Part shown: positions 7,832 to 39,400 of the stretch, in pieces
How the letters are laid out: the number at the start of each line of letters is the position of its first letter
How positions within the stretch are numbered: the stretch's first letter is position 1
NCBI GenBank assembly: GCA_018343915.1
Contig: JABRWF010000003.1
Location: 5,084,001 to 5,148,000, forward strand
DNA: 64,000 nucleotides
Reading direction: 5' to 3'
From: Agroathelia rolfsii
Lineage: Eukaryota > Basidiomycota > Agaricomycetes > Amylocorticiales > Amylocorticiaceae
Notes under the pieces: model-generated
What the model saw: only the letters and a program-made list of their open reading frames with translations
Databases searched by the model: none
What the model was told of the DNA's origin: nothing
Made by a program: the position numbers and the translations under genes

Positions 7832-8934
7832 ATGGGGTATCAACAACTTCTCTTCAACATAGGGGTTTTCCTGTACAAAGACAAAAAGAGTAATAAAATT
7901 GCCCTAGTCATATACATTGATGATGTCCTATTCTTTGGATCAAATTGGTCTGCGGTTGAGACTTTCAAAGCCCACATAATAAAACTTTGGGAATGCTAAG
8001 ACCTTGGTGATGCATGTGAGTTCCTCTGTATATATATCAAGAAATAAGGCAATAAAATCTGCCTGGATCAGATTCCATATTTGGAAAAAATTATCCAGTG
8101 GTTTGGTCTTACCAACTGTAGAAGGGTATATACACTGCTACTGGATAGTTATAGGCCCACCTAAACACTGGTCAATCTTAAAATAGATCCTAAACTCTAA
8201 CAGTACTTCCAATCTGTAATTAGAAGCCTTCTTTACATTATACTAGGTACACACCTAGACGTAGCCTTTGCGGTGACTAAGCTAGTATAATTTACCACTA
8301 ACCTAATACAAGAGCACCTGGACAAAGCATTATTTATAGCAAAGTATCTATGGATAATAAAAGACTACTAGCTAGTCTACAATAGGGATTCCAATAGTAG
8401 CTTAATTGCCTATTCAGACTTTGACTATGCTGGTAACCTAAATAACCATCACTCTATTACCAGCAATATATTTATGCTGGCAAATAGAATCTTCTCATGG
8501 AAGTCACATGCGCAACGTATAGTTGTACTCTCTTTGACCAAGGCCAAATATATAGCAGTGTTAGATTATGCCAAGCAAGTACTGTGGATTTGAAACATCC
8601 TTTCTAAACTCAAGCTACCCATGCTCCTTCCAACGCCAGTATGCTATAACAACATAGGCACCAACTTCTTAGCAGCAAATAATATAACCAATCAGAAGTC
8701 AAAATACATTGACACATAATACCATTATATTAGAAGCTATATTAAAGATGGAAAGGTTACAATCTTCTTTATAGAAGGGAATCTTAACCCCGTCAATATG
8801 TTCACAAAGAACCTGGCATTTAACAACTTCCATAAGTGCCGGCTCTTTACCGGACTTAAATTCCTAGAGCTGATTCTTCAGTACAAGATGTCCCAGTACG
8901 TTAAACAATAGAGACTATGCAGAACAAGGAGGAG

Positions 8935-9299
8935 TGTTGCAACTGTACAGAATGCCCTAGCGGCTGTGCTAAAGATACAACAAGGAAAATTAGAGCAGAG
9001 CTCCAATATTTAGTAGGAGATTAAAATACAGTATATATATAAGGTAGTAACATATTTTAATAACAACGGTTTTTCATACCTGAACTACCACCACTACCTT
9101 GCACTCATACACATACTTAAGCCTCACTGTTTATTATCTATCACCCAAGTAAGTCTAATATATAGATTATATTAGCTAGTGTGTATAGTATAGTATATAA
9201 GTATAAGTACATAGTGGTAGTATACTATGTAATATAGTATATAGTGTAGTAGCGGCCAGATGTATACACTGCTAGTCTTAGGACTGGCGCCGTTTATCA
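8935..9299 (+). repeat. 3' LTR of Copia-3
   Basis: 365 bp, from TGTTGCAACTG to GCCGTTTATCA, preceded by a purine-rich tract (GGAGGAG). It is homologous to the Copia-2 LTRs at 19855-20215 and 33490-33850. It abuts Gypsy A gag sequence. Confidence 0.88.
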
Positions 9300-23070: not shown

Positions 23071-24098
23071 TGTTGAAAGATTGAATATTTACAAGCTTCA
23101 TATCTTTCCAATAATTCCAATGAATACTTCAAATAATCATCTAACATCATGTCATACATGATTATTTATTTCATGATTTTACAACCGTTCATTGTTGAGA
23201 TATTAACAATTCTTTACATGCATATATTCATTGAAATAATATGCATATATTCTTTTATTTAATATTTTCAATATTTCATTATATCTAATCTTATCAGAGA
23301 TAAGATTATCATATCTGAGGTCACTTGACTTTATCATTTATAAATATCTTTTCATAAATATTAAACAATTCCATTTAAATATTCATTTCTAAATAATTAT
23401 TGTGAATATTACTAATTGATTTTTCACGCCCTAGATCCTTGCTTATAAATCACCAAAATATTTACTAAGCAAGTTCATAATATTAGTAATATTTATAAAA
23501 TATTACTAATATAGATCTAATAATAGGATATTGAGATCAATAGACATTTTACTTACTAATACTATACAAATTACTTACTAAGCACACAGATTGCTTACCA
23601 AGCATATTATTCAGCAAATAGGAATATTACTAAGCTGATTTATAAGCTGATTTGTAAGCAACCTTCTTACTAAGCGGATTAGATAAGCACAGGATTGGCT
23701 TACTAATCTTATAGAAATTAGAATATTTTGTATTATATAAGCACTAGCAAATTCGGCTGGAAATGATAAGTTATTTTACTTGAAAATAGTGAGTTAAATA
23801 GTCTACAAGACTAGCTCCTAGAGTACTAACTTCACCAATAGACTTACTAAGTCTACTACAAGACAACAAGCCTTTCCTAAAGGGAAAACAAGTAGGTAGT
23901 CTTAAAGGGACACCGGCTACAGTCTTATCTTAGGTGTAACAGAGTTACTAATTGCTTTTACAAATAGGTTTTATTGCCTTTAAACCTATAACACAACAGA
24001 CCATTAACTTTTCAAACAAGTAAGTTAGTTGTCTTTTAAATAGGTAACTAGTAGATTACAAGTAGTCTACATTACACCATTACCACTAACTTTTAACA
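23071..24098 (+). repeat. Copia-1 5' LTR
   Basis: 1,028 bp, from TGTTGAAAGATTG to ACTTTTAACA, AT-rich. The first 870 bp or so match the 3' LTR at about 98 percent by eye; the last 160 bp (from about 23945) are clearly different. Confidence 0.92.
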
Positions 24099-24113
24099 GG
24101 TTATGAGCCCTGC
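24099..24113 (+). promoter_or_regulatory. Copia-1 primer-binding site (initiator tRNA-Met, internal)
   Basis: GGTTATGAGCCCTGC directly after the LTR is the exact complement of the anticodon arm of yeast-type initiator tRNA-Met (GCAGGGCTCATAACC). Priming from inside the tRNA, by its 5' half, is known for Drosophila copia. Confidence 0.85.
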
Positions 24114-24168
24114 CTAAAAAGGCAGTCAGTATAAAAACAGGAGTAACTAACACAAATTTGTTATTCTA

Positions 24169-25688
24169 GTGTCTTCCTTCAACACCAAGATCTCCAACAC
24201 ATTCACCACTGTTGCCCAGGCAATCAACTTTGCCAACAGTAACCCCACCACCTCCATTGATCAATCAGAGATTGACAAGCAGTGGCAAAAAGATCTCAAG
24301 AGTAAAAGCCTACTGATTAAATAAATCAAAAGAATTACTAATAAATTCTTTATAGGCACTGAAATCCTCTGGTCACCCTCTAAACCCATCAAGCAAGAAG
24401 AAGATATCGATCTCCTTCAGGCCTTTTTAGACTCAGACAACAACATCAAGGAAAAGGAAGACAGTAAGAGAATTATAGTATAAAAAAATCCGAAAATAAA
24501 GGATAAAAAATACTAATAAAATTCTCTAGGCCTCAATAATATCAACCAGGCCCTCAGCAAATTTACAATCAACCCAGAAATCAACTGGGAAACTTACCAA
24601 GACTTCACAAATAGCTTCAAGGATATCAGGAAGGAATCTCCAGCTACTTACATATCCATAATCACAGATATTGAGGTCAACAAGGACCAGTACAATCTTG
24701 ATCACGACAAGATCACCTCTTATATCACAGCTGAAATAACACATCAGCAAGACATCTGGTGTAAACATTTCAATATTCCCTCCACAGGACCTTGCTGGAC
24801 TGTGCAAGACATATTCCAAGAAGCTGCTAGGTATAACCTGGAAGAAGAATTTGTGTACCCAGGAGAAGAAGATTCAGAACCCTCTGATATCAATATTTCT
24901 GACACCTCCTCCCCCTTCACATTATCTCCCTTGGTCAGTAGTGCCAATCTAGTGGAAAGAAGTCCCCTAGATAAATCAATTGGTGATCTTCAGGTAAAGT
25001 AAACAAAACTTTATCATTTCACCATCACTAACACATTTTTTAGGAGCTTAATAAACTCCCTGAAGAACCCATTGACAAAACCATCGGTTGGGGCACAGAA
25101 GGTCAGCAAAAATCAACTGCTCCACCTTCAAATCATTCATATACACCCTGGTCAATAGGAAATCACAAGCTCAACAATTGGGCAAAGATTCTAACCCCAC
25201 AAGAAATTCCTGAACCCGGTGAAGGTATTTGATTTATTAAATTAAATACATCTCAACCTCACTAACAACCAGTCTTAACATTACCACTAGAACTCCTCAA
25301 GTTTGCTCTTAAGACAGTTGACGTTCTAGAGCAAACTATCCAACACCAATCCTCACAGCTTTTGTGGTACAAGTCTTCCTTAGAGGACCTTACCAGAAAA
25401 GTCCGGGGCCTCCAATACACTATTGGTTGGACCAACAAGATCTAGAAGGCAAAGGAGATCAAGACCCAGGAGGAACTTGAAAATCTCAAGAGATTGGTGA
25501 ATACCCAGAGTAGGAGACTTGTTGATATTGATCTACACCAGAGAAATTTCAGCAGGAGACACTCTGGAGAGTTGAAGGAATTCAAGGACAGGTTTGAGGC
25601 ACAGATCAGAAAGATTCTAGAAAATCAGACTGGTATATCACACAGAGGTGGCAGGAGAAACAGGGAGTATAGATTCACTCCTTTTTGA
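24169..25688 (+). CDS. Copia-1 ORF0: spliced upstream protein of unknown function
   Basis: Unknown family. Five exons: 24169-24301, 24356-24463, 24530-24993, 25044-25224 and 25291-25688. They total 1,284 nt and encode 427 aa in one frame with a single TAG at 25443-25445. The introns are 50-66 bp, GT-AG, with branch-point words TACTAATA, TACTAATA, CACTAACA and CACTAACA. There is no ATG: the frame begins at GTG (VSSFNTKISNTF), one change from ATG, 70 bp after the primer site. Visible parts: a Trp-rich helical middle (INWETYQDFTNSF, then GPCWTVQDIFQEAARY), an acidic Ser/Asp stretch, a heptad-like coiled coil near residues 290-390, and a basic tail with HRGGRRNREYR. Coiled coil plus basic RGG tail would fit a second gag-like or RNA-binding protein; this is inference. 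Confidence 0.65.
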
Positions 25689-25973
25689 ACAATTTTTTAT
25701 ATACATCAGAATTATCCTCATTCTAAATAAATTTTTCTATCTCTTTTTGTTGTTTGGAGCCCTTGTATCTTTTATACAGCTCTATTTTCTTTCAAAGATC
25801 TTCTTCTATTTTTTAAATCTCTTCTATCTGTATTTTTTGTGAAAGTAACTATAGCATTTAGTTACCACAAATATTCATTGTATTCTATTTCTCTGAATTC
25901 CCTTAAAATCTGCCCAACATAAGTTTTTATAAGCTCATCATTTTAATTTTGGTTTGTATTGAGCTTTACCTGA
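25689..25973 (+). other. Very AT-rich gap between ORF0 and ORFx of Copia-1
   Basis: 285 bp, T-rich. It contains a short frame (25648-25842) rich in Phe, Leu and Tyr that looks like membrane text but is explained by T-rich composition. It may be a fifth intron joining ORF0 to ORFx: a GTATAG follows at 25666 and CAG acceptors lie before 26005. Not proven. Confidence 0.35.
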
Positions 25974-26732
25974 AACTTTGGCATAAAAACCTTTATTCTG
26001 GATTCAGATCAGGAAATAGAAACTTACTTATTTGACACAGGTGAAGAAGATACACAGACTCAGAAACCTTTTGAGTTTGAAGAAGAAAAACCTTCTAAGA
26101 AATTAAGCAAAACTGCACTTAAGCTCTTAGAAAAGAAAAACAAAAAGAAACTTCAAAGAAAAGGACATATCACCCTTAAATCTTGTTGGGAAACATACCA
26201 CAAAGATTTCCCTACACCATCCAGAAACCCAGAATTATACCTGGAAATAAAGAAATTCCTATTTGATAGTACCAAATATAATTGGGAAAAAGTCAGTCAG
26301 GATTTCCAGAACAAATTCTTCACTCTCTGTGCAGAAAGAATAATTCTTGCAAGAGTATTCAGAAGATTTGACAAAGTCAAACCTTTCACATTTCCAGACG
26401 AAGAAGTAAGAGAAAACTCTCAAAACCATACAAGGTATCTTATCAAAATCACTCCAATGCCTCATAATTGGAGTATACCATACTTCACACCAGAGGAAAT
26501 TGGAGACAAAGTTAGTCTTACAGATATAGAGAGATTAGACGATATAATCTACCTCTATAATTCAGGACATTGGGATAGCATACATCCAGGTCCAAACCTT
26601 AAAGACTTTAAGGAATTCCTAGAAAATCATCACAAGGAATACCTTGAAACAAGCCTCAACAGGATTATAGAAAATTATAGCATATATCTATATCCTATCA
26701 AAGACAGCTTTATATCCTGGGATTTTGTATAA
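25974..26732 (+). CDS. Copia-1 ORFx: second unknown upstream frame
   Basis: Open for about 250 codons between a TGA at about 25971 and the TAA at 26730-26732, with no ATG before 26457, so it probably begins by splicing from upstream. Acidic N-terminus (LFDTGEEDTQTQ), a Lys-rich segment, then a conserved-looking part (NWEKVSQDFQNKFFTLCAE, then PHNWSIPYFTPEEIGDK and LDDIIYLYNSGHWDSI). It shares an NWE-x-x-QDF pattern with ORF0, which may mean the two are related or parts of one protein. It ends 7 bp before the gag ATG. No stop interrupts it. Confidence 0.6.
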   Translation, partial: NFGIKTFILDSDQEIETYLFDTGEEDTQTQKPFEFEEEKPSKKLSKTALKLLEKKNKKKLQRKGHITLKSCWETYHKDFPTPSRNPELYLEIKKFLFDSTKYNWEKVSQDFQNKFFTLCAERIILARVFRRFDKVKPFTFPDEEVRENSQNHTRYLIKITPMPHNWSIPYFTPEEIGDKVSLTDIERLDDIIYLYNSGHWDSIHPGPNLKDFKEFLENHHKEYLETSLNRIIENYSIYLYPIKDSFISWDFV

Positions 26733-31104: not shown

Positions 31105-32130
31105 TGTTGAAAGATTGAATATTTACAAGCTTCATATCTTTCCAATGATTCCAATGAATACTTCAAATAATCATCTAACATCAAGTCATACATGATTATT
31201 TATTTCATGATTTTACAACCGTTCATTGTTGAGATATTAACAATTCTTTACATGTATATATTCATTGAAATAATATGCATATATTCTTTTATTTAATATT
31301 TTCAATATTTCATTATATCTAATCTTATCAGAGATAAGATTATCATATCTGAAGTCACTTGACTTTATCATTTATGAATATCTTTTTCATAAATATTAAA
31401 CAATTCCATTTAAATATTCATTTCTAAATAATTATTGTGAATATTGATTTTTCACGCCATAGACCCTTGCTTATAAATCACCAAAATATTTACTAAGCAA
31501 GTTCATAATATTAGTAATATTTATAAAATATTACTAATATAGATCTAATAATAGGATATTGAGATTGATAGACATTTTACTTACTAATACTATACAAATT
31601 ACTTACTAAGCACACAGATTGCTTACCAAGCATATTATTCAGCAAATAGGAATATTACTAAGCTGATTTATAAGCTGATTTGTAAGCAACCTTTCTTACT
31701 AAGCGGATTAGATAAGCACAGGATTGGCTTACTAATCTTGTAGAAATTAGAATATTTTGTATTATATAAGCACCAGCAAATTCGGCTGGAAATGACAAGT
31801 TATTTCACTCGAAAATAGTGAGTTAAATAGTCTACAAGACTAGCTCCTAGAGTACTAACTTCACCCCAGACTTACAAAGTCTACAAGACAAGACAACAAG
31901 CCTTTCCTAAAGGGAAACAAGTAGGTAGTCTCAAAGGGACACTGGCTACAGTCTTATCTTTAGTATAGTAAAGTTACTAATTGCTTCCTATCCTAGGAAA
32001 CCTTGCCTTATCTTAGGAACAACTCAAAGCCTGTACTTTTCTTTACAAGTAAGTATTTGCTTCACAACAGGTAACTTGTGAGCTAGTATATAGCCACACT
32101 ATACAACCTAAGAACTACAATAGTTTAACA
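31105..32130 (+). repeat. Copia-1 3' LTR
   Basis: 1,026 bp, from TGTTGAAAGATTG to TAGTTTAACA. Its last 160 bp differ from the 5' LTR but match solo LTR E (37002-38027, same length) and LTR D, including a CAAGTC variant near the start that the 5' LTR lacks. Confidence 0.92.
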
Positions 32131-36436: not shown

Positions 36437-39400
36437 ATAGAACCTCAAGGTATAGGGTTGCACATCAAATCACTAAACTGCCATAAAAGCAGCAATGTCA
36501 TATACAGCCTCATAAACAATACTAGCCCGGATGAGTGGGATATCATTTGCATCCAGGAACCACCAGCCAACTTCAACACACACGCATACTGGAGCAAACA
36601 CTGGGTGGTAGTTGCCCCCTCGCCAACTACCTCATCTAATCTCCCCACCCAAGCAGTAACCCTAGTCAATGCCAATATACAAGCTGATGCGTACAACCCT
36701 ATCTTAGTCCCACACCATAATATAGTGGGACTATCCCTTAGCACTAGCTCCTCCCTCATTAACTTATATAACATCTACAATGATGTTCAACATAATAACT
36801 CTATAACTGCCATTAGCCGCAGCCTAGCCCAACACCCTCCCTCCTCCAACCATATTCTTATTGGCGACTTCAACCATTACTCACCCCTCTGGTCAGGCTC
36901 TGACCGACTAGCCCGCACGGACAATGCAAAAAACCGTGAACTTGCCAAACCACTTCTCCAGCTCCTAGGAACATTCCACCTAGAATGCCATACCTTACCA
37001 GTGTTAAACTATTGTAGTTCTTAGGTTGTATAGTGTGGCTATATGCTAGCTCACAAGTTACCTGTTGTGAAGCAAACACTTACTTGTAAAGAAAAGTGCA
37101 GGCTTTGAGTTGTTCCTAAGATAAGGCAAGGTTTCCTAGGATAGGAAGCAATTAGTAACTTTACTATACTGAAGATAAGACTGTAGCCGGTGTCCCTTTG
37201 AGACTACCTACTTGTTTCCCTTTAGGAAAGGCTTGTTGTCTTGTCTTGTAGACTTTGTAAGTCTGGGGTGAAGTTAGTACTCTAGGAGCTAGTCTTGTAG
37301 ACTATTTAACTCACTATTTTCGAGTGAAATAACTTGTCATTTCCAGCCGAATTTGCTGGTGCTTATATAATACAAAATATTCTAATTTCTACAAGATTAG
37401 TAAGCCAATCCTGTGCTTATCTAATCCGCTTAGTAAGAAAGGTTGCTTACAAATCAGCTTATAAATCAGCTTAGTAATATTCCTATTTGCTGAATAATAT
37501 GCTTAGTAAGCAATCTGTGTGCTTAGTAAGTAATTTGTATAGTATTAGTAAGTAAAATGTCTATCAATCTCAATATCCTATTATTAGATCTGTATTAGTA
37601 ATATTTTATAAATATTACTAATATTATGAACTTGCTTAGTAAATATTTTGGTGATTTATAAGCAAGGGTCTATAGCGTGAAAAATCAATATTCACAATAA
37701 TTATTTAGAAATGAATATTTAAATGGAATTGTTTAATATTTATGAAAAAGATATTCATAAATGATAAAGTCAAGTGACTTCAGATATGATAATCTTATCT
37801 CTGATAAGATTAGATATAATGAAATATTGAAAATATTAAATAAAAGAATATATGCATATTATTTCAATGAATATATACATGTAAAGAATTGTTAATATCT
37901 CAACAATGAACGGTTGTAAAATCATGAAATAAATAATCATGTATGACTTGATGTTAGATGATTATTTGAAGTATTCATTGGAATCATTGGAAAGATATGA
38001 AGCTTGTAAATATTCAATCTTTCAACAACCAGGCACCCACACCTGCTTCTCAGATAGTCATCAATCATAGTCAACAATCGACCTTGTCTTTATGTCGGAA
38101 GAACTCAGCGATGCTTGGGTTAAATGCTCAACAGAATACGGCCATAGATCAGACCATTCTGCAATAACAATAACACTGGATACCAACCTTATAAGGTCAA
38201 CATTTTCCCCACGTCCTCTTTTCCACCTGGTTGACTGGCTCGAGTTTCAACAATGCTTTGATGAGAAGCTAAAATCCGAATACAGAACTACATCCTTACA
38301 AAGTGCCGAAGACGTTGACCATGCAGTGAAAACAATCACCCATATATACCAGTCCATGCTTACCCTAATCACCCCAGTCTCTAACCTAGCCAATATGCAA
38401 AACAATGGTAGTTAGAAGACCTAACAAACCTCTGCCAGGAACACAAAAGAGCTACACAAAGAGCGAGCCGACCACAGGCATCCGATGAGGATAGACAATA
38501 TGCAACAGCCATCAAACGCCAATACTTTTCAGCAATCCGCCAACAGAAAAGAGCCCATTGGAACAACTGGCTGGCTGAGATTGATGAGCAAAGTATCTGG
38601 ACGGCAAACAAGTTTGTTACGGCAGCCAGTGAAAATAATACATCAACAAAAATCCCCCCCCTTCAATCCGGTTCAGGCCTAGCTACGAGCAGCGAGGACA
38701 AATGCGCAATCTTACTAGACACCTTTTTCCCTACCCCACCCCAGGCATCACTAGAAGATACGGTGAACTTTACATACCCCTCAGCACTACCAGACGAGCT
38801 TTTCACCCTGCAAGATACAGTAGCAGCTATACATAACCTGAGCCCATACAAAGCACCAGGGAACTCAGGTATTCCCAATATGGCTATCTAACAGACATGC
38901 AAGACCGCCGCCCCAATCCTCACCAACATAGCAAACGCATGCTTCCGGCTGGGATACCACCCCCAGACATGGCGTATTTTCACAACAATCACACTTCGGA
39001 AACCAGGCAAAGATGACTACTCTATTCCAAAAGCCTACCGCCCTATAGCTCTAGAAGATACTCTCTCTAAAGTTATTGAAGCAATAGTCACAAATAGACT
39101 TTCGCACCTAGCAGAGACCTATAACCTAATCCTACCAAATCACTTTGGTGGCCAGCCAGGCCGTACTACTACTGATGCTATACTACTCCTCACGCAATGC
39201 ATCAAGGACACATGGTGCAAGGGTCAGGTTACCTCTGTACTGTTCTATGATATATTGCAGGCTTTCCCCACAGTCTCACATGAACGACTACTGTATAATC
39301 TTCACAAGAGACAGGCCCCACAGCAGCTGGTAAACTGGGTGGCAAGTTTCCTTCGCGGCCGCCTTACAAACCTCAAGTTTGATGACTATACCTCGGATCT

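What the first reader, a model, noticed from the sequence alone, without database searches (positions are those of the whole stretch)
24169..25688. A Copia retrotransposon with a spliced, unknown upstream ORF (ORF0)
Four short GT-AG introns, each with a TACTAAT- or CACTAAC-like branch point just before the acceptor, join five exons into 1,284 nt (exactly 428 codons) with one internal stop. Without splicing the region is full of stops. The frame starts 70 bp after the primer site and lies before gag. Copia elements normally have one gag-pol frame and no introns; known extra ORFs (Sireviruses) lie after pol. Introns in a retrotransposon should be lost in each round of reverse transcription, so their survival suggests that the unspliced RNA is the genome and the spliced one the mRNA for ORF0, much as retroviruses do.
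Basis: partly seen in the sequence, partly recalled or inferred. Interest (0 to 1): 0.88.

Follow-up and report, generated by a model that had tools for sequence, protein, structure and literature searches.

The report
Spliced gene inside a fungal retrotransposon
A fungal jumping gene of the Copia type carries an extra, many-intron gene in front of its usual genes, and the sequence suggests that splicing both creates that gene's start codon and removes the site needed for copying, which would explain how its introns survive.

Summary
ORF0 (five exons, four introns) recurs beside Copia gag-pol in three sequence types (55% and 33% protein identity). It is under purifying selection (dN/dS 0.06-0.22), introns lie at homologous places, and five copies lack one or two introns exactly, a genomic record of splicing. 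The reading changes in four ways. (1) ORF0 has no ATG. Exon 1 begins at a conserved branch point plus acceptor (24169/24170); a conserved donor (24019/24020) lies in the LTR before the primer site; joining them gives A|TG. This fifth intron holds the primer binding site, so spliced RNA could not be primed normally; pattern searches found no copy without it. (2) A second extra ORF (ORF0b, 25998-26732) lies between ORF0 and gag. (3) The 2.6 kb from primer site to gag ATG holds 1 ATG where about 31 are expected, and 0 in five copies with near-identical LTRs: unspliced RNA could be scanned to gag, as in tungro- and badnaviruses. (4) ORF0 is a cassette exchanged between elements with nearly identical pol. 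Splicing of intron 0, scanning and the functions of both proteins are inferred; no RNA was examined. Two other Copia families with the same primer site lack the cassette.

The parts
23071..24098 (+). 5' LTR (TGTTGAAAG...TTTTAACA)
24099..24113 (+). primer binding site GGTTATGAGCCCTGC, 15 nt complementary to the inside (anticodon stem-loop) of two tRNA-Met genes of this genome, so a half-tRNA primer as in Drosophila copia (recalled)
24103..24117 (+). 4-codon upstream ORF ATGAGCCCTGCCTAA that starts in the primer site
   Evidence: read
24020..24169 (+). intron 0 (predicted, 150 nt): donor ACAA|GTAAGT in the LTR, branch CTAAC, acceptor TTCTAG|TG; contains the primer binding site; joining gives A|TG
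   Evidence: no copy without it in pattern searches
24170..24301 (+). ORF0 exon 1
24302..24355 (+). intron 1 (phase 1); absent in L015 and L036
24356..24463 (+). ORF0 exon 2
24464..24529 (+). intron 2 (phase 1); exactly absent in L037, absent in type B
24530..24993 (+). ORF0 exon 3, holds a predicted helical domain
24994..25043 (+). intron 3 (phase 0); same place in types A, B, C
25044..25224 (+). ORF0 exon 4
25225..25290 (+). intron 4 (phase 1); exactly absent in L035, L036 and L023
25291..25688 (+). ORF0 exon 5 with the best conserved tail (ILENQTG.SHRGG), ends TGA; this copy has an internal TAG at 25443-25445
25998..26732 (+). ORF0b, second extra ORF (244 codons from a candidate near-cognate CTG start; no ATG start), stop TAA
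26741..31085 (+). gag-pol (ATG 26741), Copia RVT_2; broken into several frames by in-frame stops in this copy
31105..32130 (+). 3' LTR; its 3' part differs from that of the 5' LTR (161/235 identical)

Best explanation
A Copia lineage keeps a two-gene cassette (ORF0, ORF0b) between its primer site and gag and sorts its transcripts by splicing. Fully spliced RNA: an LTR exon joins exon 1, which makes the start codon A|TG and cuts out the primer binding site; introns 1-4 are removed too; this RNA makes ORF0 protein and cannot be primed for reverse transcription. Unspliced RNA: it keeps the primer site, has no ORF0 start codon, and its 2.6 kb leader has almost no AUG, so that ribosomes can scan to the gag AUG, some perhaps starting ORF0b on the way at a near-cognate codon; it is also the genome. 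Introns persist because only RNA that keeps intron 0 is a template; an RNA that keeps intron 0 but has lost another intron is copied now and then, which gives the exact intron-loss copies. Shown here: coding and selection of ORF0, conserved intron places, exact losses, ATG depletion. Inferred: splicing of intron 0, scanning to gag, near-cognate start of ORF0b. The function of ORF0 is a guess: a protein with an acidic front part, a helical domain and an Arg-rich tail, made only from fully spliced RNA, perhaps binding the unspliced RNA or the particle.
For: ORF0 dN/dS: within A 0.09-0.13 (6 of 6 pairs), within B 0.06-0.14 (3 of 3), A-B 0.19, A-C 0.22 (both with saturated dS; the B-C pair could not be computed); pol 0.08-0.19 (7 pairs). 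Types share introns: A has 1,2,3,4; B has 1,3,4 plus one more; C has 2,3,4. Six absences in five copies: L015 (1), L036 (1 and 4), L037 (2), L035 (4), L023 (4). Intron 0: A|GTAAGT within 110 nt before the primer site in 18 of 20 distinct loci that have the site, CTAAC-type branch plus YAG|TG after it in 19 of 20, also in L021 whose LTR end and leader are only 131/210 identical to the window's; two control families lack both. Joined exon0-exon1 pattern with up to 3 mismatches: type A 14 matches, 9 of them the unspliced CTAG|TG, the other 5 (each with 3 mismatches) at places without an ORF0 match; type B 11 matches, all CTAG|TG. ATGs in the leader: window 1 vs 31 expected (0 of 1000 shuffles as low); all 12 measurable copies (of 21 tried) lie below every one of 200 shuffles, five have 0 vs 23-28, the rest 1-7. 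ORF0 proteins of one copy each of three types have no Met, and ATGs in any frame are fewer than in synonymous shuffles (0 vs 4.7, 0 vs 5.9, 3 vs 7.4; 1, 0 and 27 of 1000 as low). ORF0b: NTG at one aligned place, CTG in 10 of 10 type A loci matched, TTG in 8 of 9 type B loci (L026, decayed, has TTA), GTG in C; each NTG has A at -3 and G at +4 (read).
Against: No RNA evidence at all. A|GTAAGT arises in 13% of shuffles of that 110-nt AT-rich stretch and the loci are related, so intron 0 rests on conservation in diverged LTRs and on the split ATG. Two loci (L017, L036) lack the donor motif, one (L020) the TG. The pattern search sees only copies within 3 mismatches and no type C. The primer site itself holds an ATG (4-codon uORF) that scanning ribosomes must pass; scanning 2.6 kb is long. 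Some copies have 2-7 ATGs in the leader, the only type C copy measured 5. ATG depletion within ORF0b alone is weak (0 vs 2.3, 31 of 1000; window 1 vs 2.7, 78 of 1000), and its dN/dS within the family is 0.18-0.52 on few changes. The junction of L015 is flanked by substitutions, so its exactness is by length. ORF0 and ORF0b have no known relative.
Confidence: 0.72

Rival explanations
1. ORF0 is a real intron-bearing gene of the element, but intron 0 does not exist: ORF0 RNA starts at an internal promoter behind the primer site (TATAAAA at 24130) and is translated from GTG 24169, or ORF0 is a separate transcription unit.
For: TATAAAA at about 24130 just before ORF0 and GTG in frame in types A, B and C; an RNA that starts behind the primer site would also lack it.
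Against: GTG has a poor context (CTA GTG T) whereas the spliced ATG has A at -3; the TATA-like motif is not in L021 or L016; it leaves the conserved LTR donor and the branch-acceptor at exactly A|TG unexplained.
Confidence: 0.17
2. ORF0 is a host gene caught by DNA-level capture, introns and all, and is only carried along.
For: A gene with several short introns is what host genes look like; no viral or retroelement relative found.
Against: 53 of 59 genomic ORF0 rows have an ORF0b row within 4 kb downstream; of the other six, most lie in elements cut by an insertion, in fragments or at a contig end as far as searches show, and none was seen as an intact stand-alone gene. Purifying selection holds between types at 33-55% identity. 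A host gene would have no reason to be free of ATG (inference). Capture as a remote origin is not excluded.
Confidence: 0.12
3. As function: ORF0 is an envelope-like protein made from a spliced RNA, as in retroviruses.
For: Spliced RNA with an LTR leader exon, as env RNA has (recalled).
Against: No membrane-spanning stretch in the copy tested (maximum 19-residue Kyte-Doolittle mean 0.47 in L009); position before gag.
Confidence: 0.02
4. As function: ORF0 acts like Rev of complex retroviruses, made from fully spliced RNA and binding intron-containing RNA of its own type so that it leaves the nucleus unspliced; the cassette is exchanged as a unit because protein and RNA must match.
For: ORF0 needs all introns removed, the genome needs them retained; Arg-rich tail; ORF0 with its introns is exchanged as one block between closely similar backbones; introns change no faster than fourfold sites in 8 pairs compared.
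Against: By analogy only; no RNA-binding test; the slow change of introns is weak once exon 3 is left out.
Confidence: 0.25

Closest known systems
Ty1/Copia (Pseudoviridae) elements with spliced subgenomic RNA: barley BARE1 and Arabidopsis EVADE
   Same: Copia element; spliced and unspliced RNAs have different roles; BARE authors argue that spliced RNA is kept out of replication (PMC3735527, PMC8892269, passages read)
   Different: There splicing favours Gag from the gag-pol frame; here it makes an extra protein from several exons before gag, and the first intron would hold the primer site
Ogre (Ty3/gypsy, plants)
   Same: Long extra ORF (550 codons) between LTR and gag, and an intron-bearing RNA (PMC1142308, PMC6317226, passages read)
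   Different: Ogre is gypsy and its intron lies between the gag-protease and RT frames; PMC1142308 (2005) says that no introns upstream of gag had been reported in any LTR retroelement
Tungrovirus RTBV and badnaviruses (Caulimoviridae)
   Same: Two accessory ORFs free of internal AUGs before the main polyprotein, passed by scanning; a non-AUG start (AUU) in RTBV ORF I (PMC5902531, passages read)
   Different: Plant pararetroviruses with other genes; ORF I starts at AUU, not at a spliced AUG, and their accessory ORFs are not split by introns (recalled)
Complex retroviruses (Rev/Tat logic; recalled)
   Same: Regulatory protein from fully spliced RNA with an exon in the leader, genome from unspliced RNA
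   Different: In retroviruses the leader donor lies behind the primer site, so spliced RNA keeps it (recalled); no sequence relation seen

Membership tests
Ty1/Copia LTR retrotransposon | RVT_2 reverse transcriptase, with the integrase-side domain before RT | tested here: met
   RVT_2 E 5e-69 at 286-528 and SH3_retrovirus at 26-98 of the same frame
Ty1/Copia LTR retrotransposon | LTRs TG...CA and a primer binding site | tested here: met
Ty1/Copia LTR retrotransposon | gag close behind the primer site, no extra ORF (usual form, not a strict criterion) | tested here: not met
   gag ATG is 2.6 kb behind the primer site; 77 and 90 nt in the two of six other Copia loci that had the same primer site
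Sirevirus (Copia with env-like ORF) | extra ORF between pol and 3' LTR | tested here: not met
   19 nt between the gag-pol stop and the 3' LTR; extra ORFs lie before gag
Ogre/Tat (Ty3/gypsy) | gypsy-type reverse transcriptase | tested here: not met
   RVT_2 was the reverse transcriptase family matched
Caulimoviridae (tungro-/badnavirus) | accessory ORFs free of AUG before the polyprotein | tested here: met
   (works-like only)
Caulimoviridae (tungro-/badnavirus) | no LTRs | tested here: not met
   LTRs present, Copia pol
Env-bearing retroelement | membrane-spanning extra protein | tested here: not met
   hydropathy of one ORF0 copy

The most novel reading that the evidence does not exclude
A retrotransposon in which splicing of one LTR-to-ORF0 intron is a double switch: it builds the start codon of an accessory gene and at the same time removes the primer binding site, so that translation of ORF0 and reverse transcription exclude each other; the whole 2.6 kb leader is kept free of AUG so that the unspliced genome can be scanned to gag, with ORF0b started at a near-cognate codon. 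It would be a long-lived multi-intron gene in an LTR retrotransposon, exchanged as a cassette between elements.
Probability: 0.62. Interest if true: 0.9.

Novelty: new variant of a known kind. Interest (0 to 1): 0.84.

Why it matters
Introns are expected to vanish from elements that move through RNA. Here a gene with four to five introns has been kept across three lineages at 33-55% protein identity, with rare exact losses as a by-product, and the layout offers a simple testable reason: the spliced RNA loses the primer site. It also shows a retrotransposon with an AUG-free leader like that of plant pararetroviruses, and two orphan accessory genes that can now be tested for a role in RNA sorting.

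Tried and rejected

Rows dropped: the cross-table used 102 of 102 RVT_2 rows, 32 of 32 ORF0b rows and 40 of 59 ORF0 rows; one search used all 59. In one search, 21 loci with the primer site were tried (L019 repeats DNA of L015); 12 had the gag ATG motif and were measured, 9 not. One search leaves L019 out (20 loci). One search examined six other Copia loci; in four (L031-L034) the same primer site was not found and the leader was not measured. Spliced models of L018, L019, L020, L026 and L027 are disturbed by insertions and decay and were not used for intron comparison or dN/dS.

Full report
OBSERVATION. The window is part of a 37.7 Mb, 8-contig genome without name. LTRs lie at 23071-24098 and 31105-32130, the primer site at 24099-24113 pairs with the inside of two tRNA-Met genes of the same genome, and pol is Copia (RVT_2). 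The genome holds many copies of the region. In the 8 aligned first the differences behave as in a coding gene: third positions dominate, and the exon length stays 1,284 or 1,287 nt in 7 of 8 while introns 1-3 vary by single bases. Four of 8 are free of internal stops.

DEEPER RELATIVES. Other elements carry a diverged ORF0. Spliced alignment (L021 corrected by hand) gives type B (55% identical to A) and type C (33%). Type A has introns 1-4, type B has 1, 3, 4 and one more between exons 3 and 4, type C has 2, 3, 4. dN/dS is 0.06-0.14 within types and 0.19-0.22 between types (with saturated dS), like pol (0.08-0.19).

SPLICING RECORDED IN THE GENOME. Five copies lack one or two introns, exon joined to exon: L015 (intron 1; exact in length, with substitutions beside the junction), L036 (1 and 4), L037 (2), L035 (4), and the type B copy L023 (4). 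L015 and L036 may share one event; L023 is of another type. This is what reverse transcription of partly spliced RNA leaves. By contrast, pattern searches for the form with intron 0 removed (up to 3 mismatches) found 9 type A and 11 type B sites, all of which read CTAG|TG; five further type A matches with 3 mismatches lie at places without an ORF0 match. Diverged copies and type C are outside that search.

THE MISSING START AND INTRON 0. ORF0 has no ATG in frame and no Met in one copy of each type. Its 5' edge is a branch-acceptor pair CTAAC...TTCTAG|TG, found in 19 of 20 distinct loci with the primer site, and A|GTAAGT stands 74-85 nt before the primer site in 18 of 20. Joined they give ACA ATG TC. 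The same ten letters ACAAGTAAGT stand in L021, where LTR end and leader are 131/210 identical. Two other Copia families with the same primer site (L029, L030; two of six loci looked at) have neither, and their gag ATG is about 90 and 77 nt behind the site. The motif alone is not rare by chance (13% of shuffles); the case rests on conservation and on the split ATG.

THE ATG-POOR LEADER. From the primer site to the gag ATG the window has 1 ATG in 2,624 nt against 31 expected, none of 1000 shuffles as low; pol has 104 against 94. All 12 copies measured are below all 200 of their shuffles; L009, L012, L023, L024 and L025 have none, the others 1-7. The lack of ATG in ORF0 extends to the other frames (synonymous shuffles). 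A gene translated only from its own mRNA has no reason to avoid out-of-frame ATGs; a leader that must be scanned has (inference). In tungro- and badnaviruses the accessory ORFs are AUG-free for this reason (PMC5902531, passages read).

ORF0b. A second conserved frame, 32% identical between types A and C, precedes gag. It has no ATG start; the aligned place holds CTG in 10 type A loci, TTG in 8 of 9 type B loci and GTG in C, with A at -3 and G at +4. This is a candidate start, not shown. Selection on ORF0b within the family is less clear (dN/dS 0.18-0.52 on few changes). 26 of 102 RVT_2 rows have both ORF0 and ORF0b upstream, and 53 of 59 ORF0 rows have an ORF0b row within 4 kb downstream.

MECHANISM AND NOVELTY. 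The simplest account is given above: intron 0 as a switch between an ORF0 mRNA that cannot be primed and an unspliced RNA that serves gag-pol and replication. Spliced Copia RNAs are known in BARE1 and EVADE (PMC3735527, PMC8892269, passages), an ORF before gag and an intron elsewhere in Ogre (PMC1142308, PMC6317226, passages). PMC1142308 states for 2005 that no intron before gag had been reported in any LTR retroelement. Extra ORFs in plant elements are most often behind pol (PMC7264820, passages), those of rotifer elements are third ORFs (PMC5408684, passages). I therefore rate it a new variant of a known kind. What ORF0 and ORF0b do is open: no relatives, a helical domain in ORF0 without a known match, no membrane span in the copy tested, an Arg-rich tail.

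The odds of the host-capture rival were lowered from 0.15 to 0.12 because all 59 ORF0 rows were now placed; other odds stand.

Noticed in passing
window 25998-26732: A second conserved extra ORF (ORF0b, no ATG start; NTG at the same place in three types) ends 8 nt before the gag ATG (TAAGTCAAAATG; TAAAATG in type C). 29 of 32 ORF0b rows have an ORF0 match within 3 kb upstream.
   Followed up: partly
L023, L024, L025 versus window 24140-26060: Type B ORF0 sits in elements whose LTR plus leader start and gag-pol resemble the window element with type A ORF0: L023 and L025 95-97%, L024 90-93% identical. ORF0 dS (0.16-0.29) exceeds pol dS (0.06-0.07) for the same three type A pairs: cassette exchange between elements.
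   Followed up: partly
window 23071-24098 / 31105-32130; L009 17-1048 / 8051-9081: The two LTRs of one element are nearly identical in the 5' 770 nt (L009 770/770, window 747/763) but only about 70% in the 3' 240 nt, which reverse transcription should make identical (recalled); the window copy has no target duplication. Recombination between copies is likely.
   Followed up: partly
L024 131-9209: Identical LTRs (1011 of 1011 compared positions) and a 5-bp target duplication CTTTG, so the family moved recently.
   Followed up: no
window 31105-32130 and 37002-38027: A second LTR copy lies inverted 4.9 kb behind the 3' LTR, 99% complementary.
   Followed up: no
window 24103-24117: The primer site forces an ATG; a stop follows after 4 codons in 16 of the 17 distinct loci listed (not in L015), perhaps kept so that ribosomes can resume scanning.
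   Followed up: no
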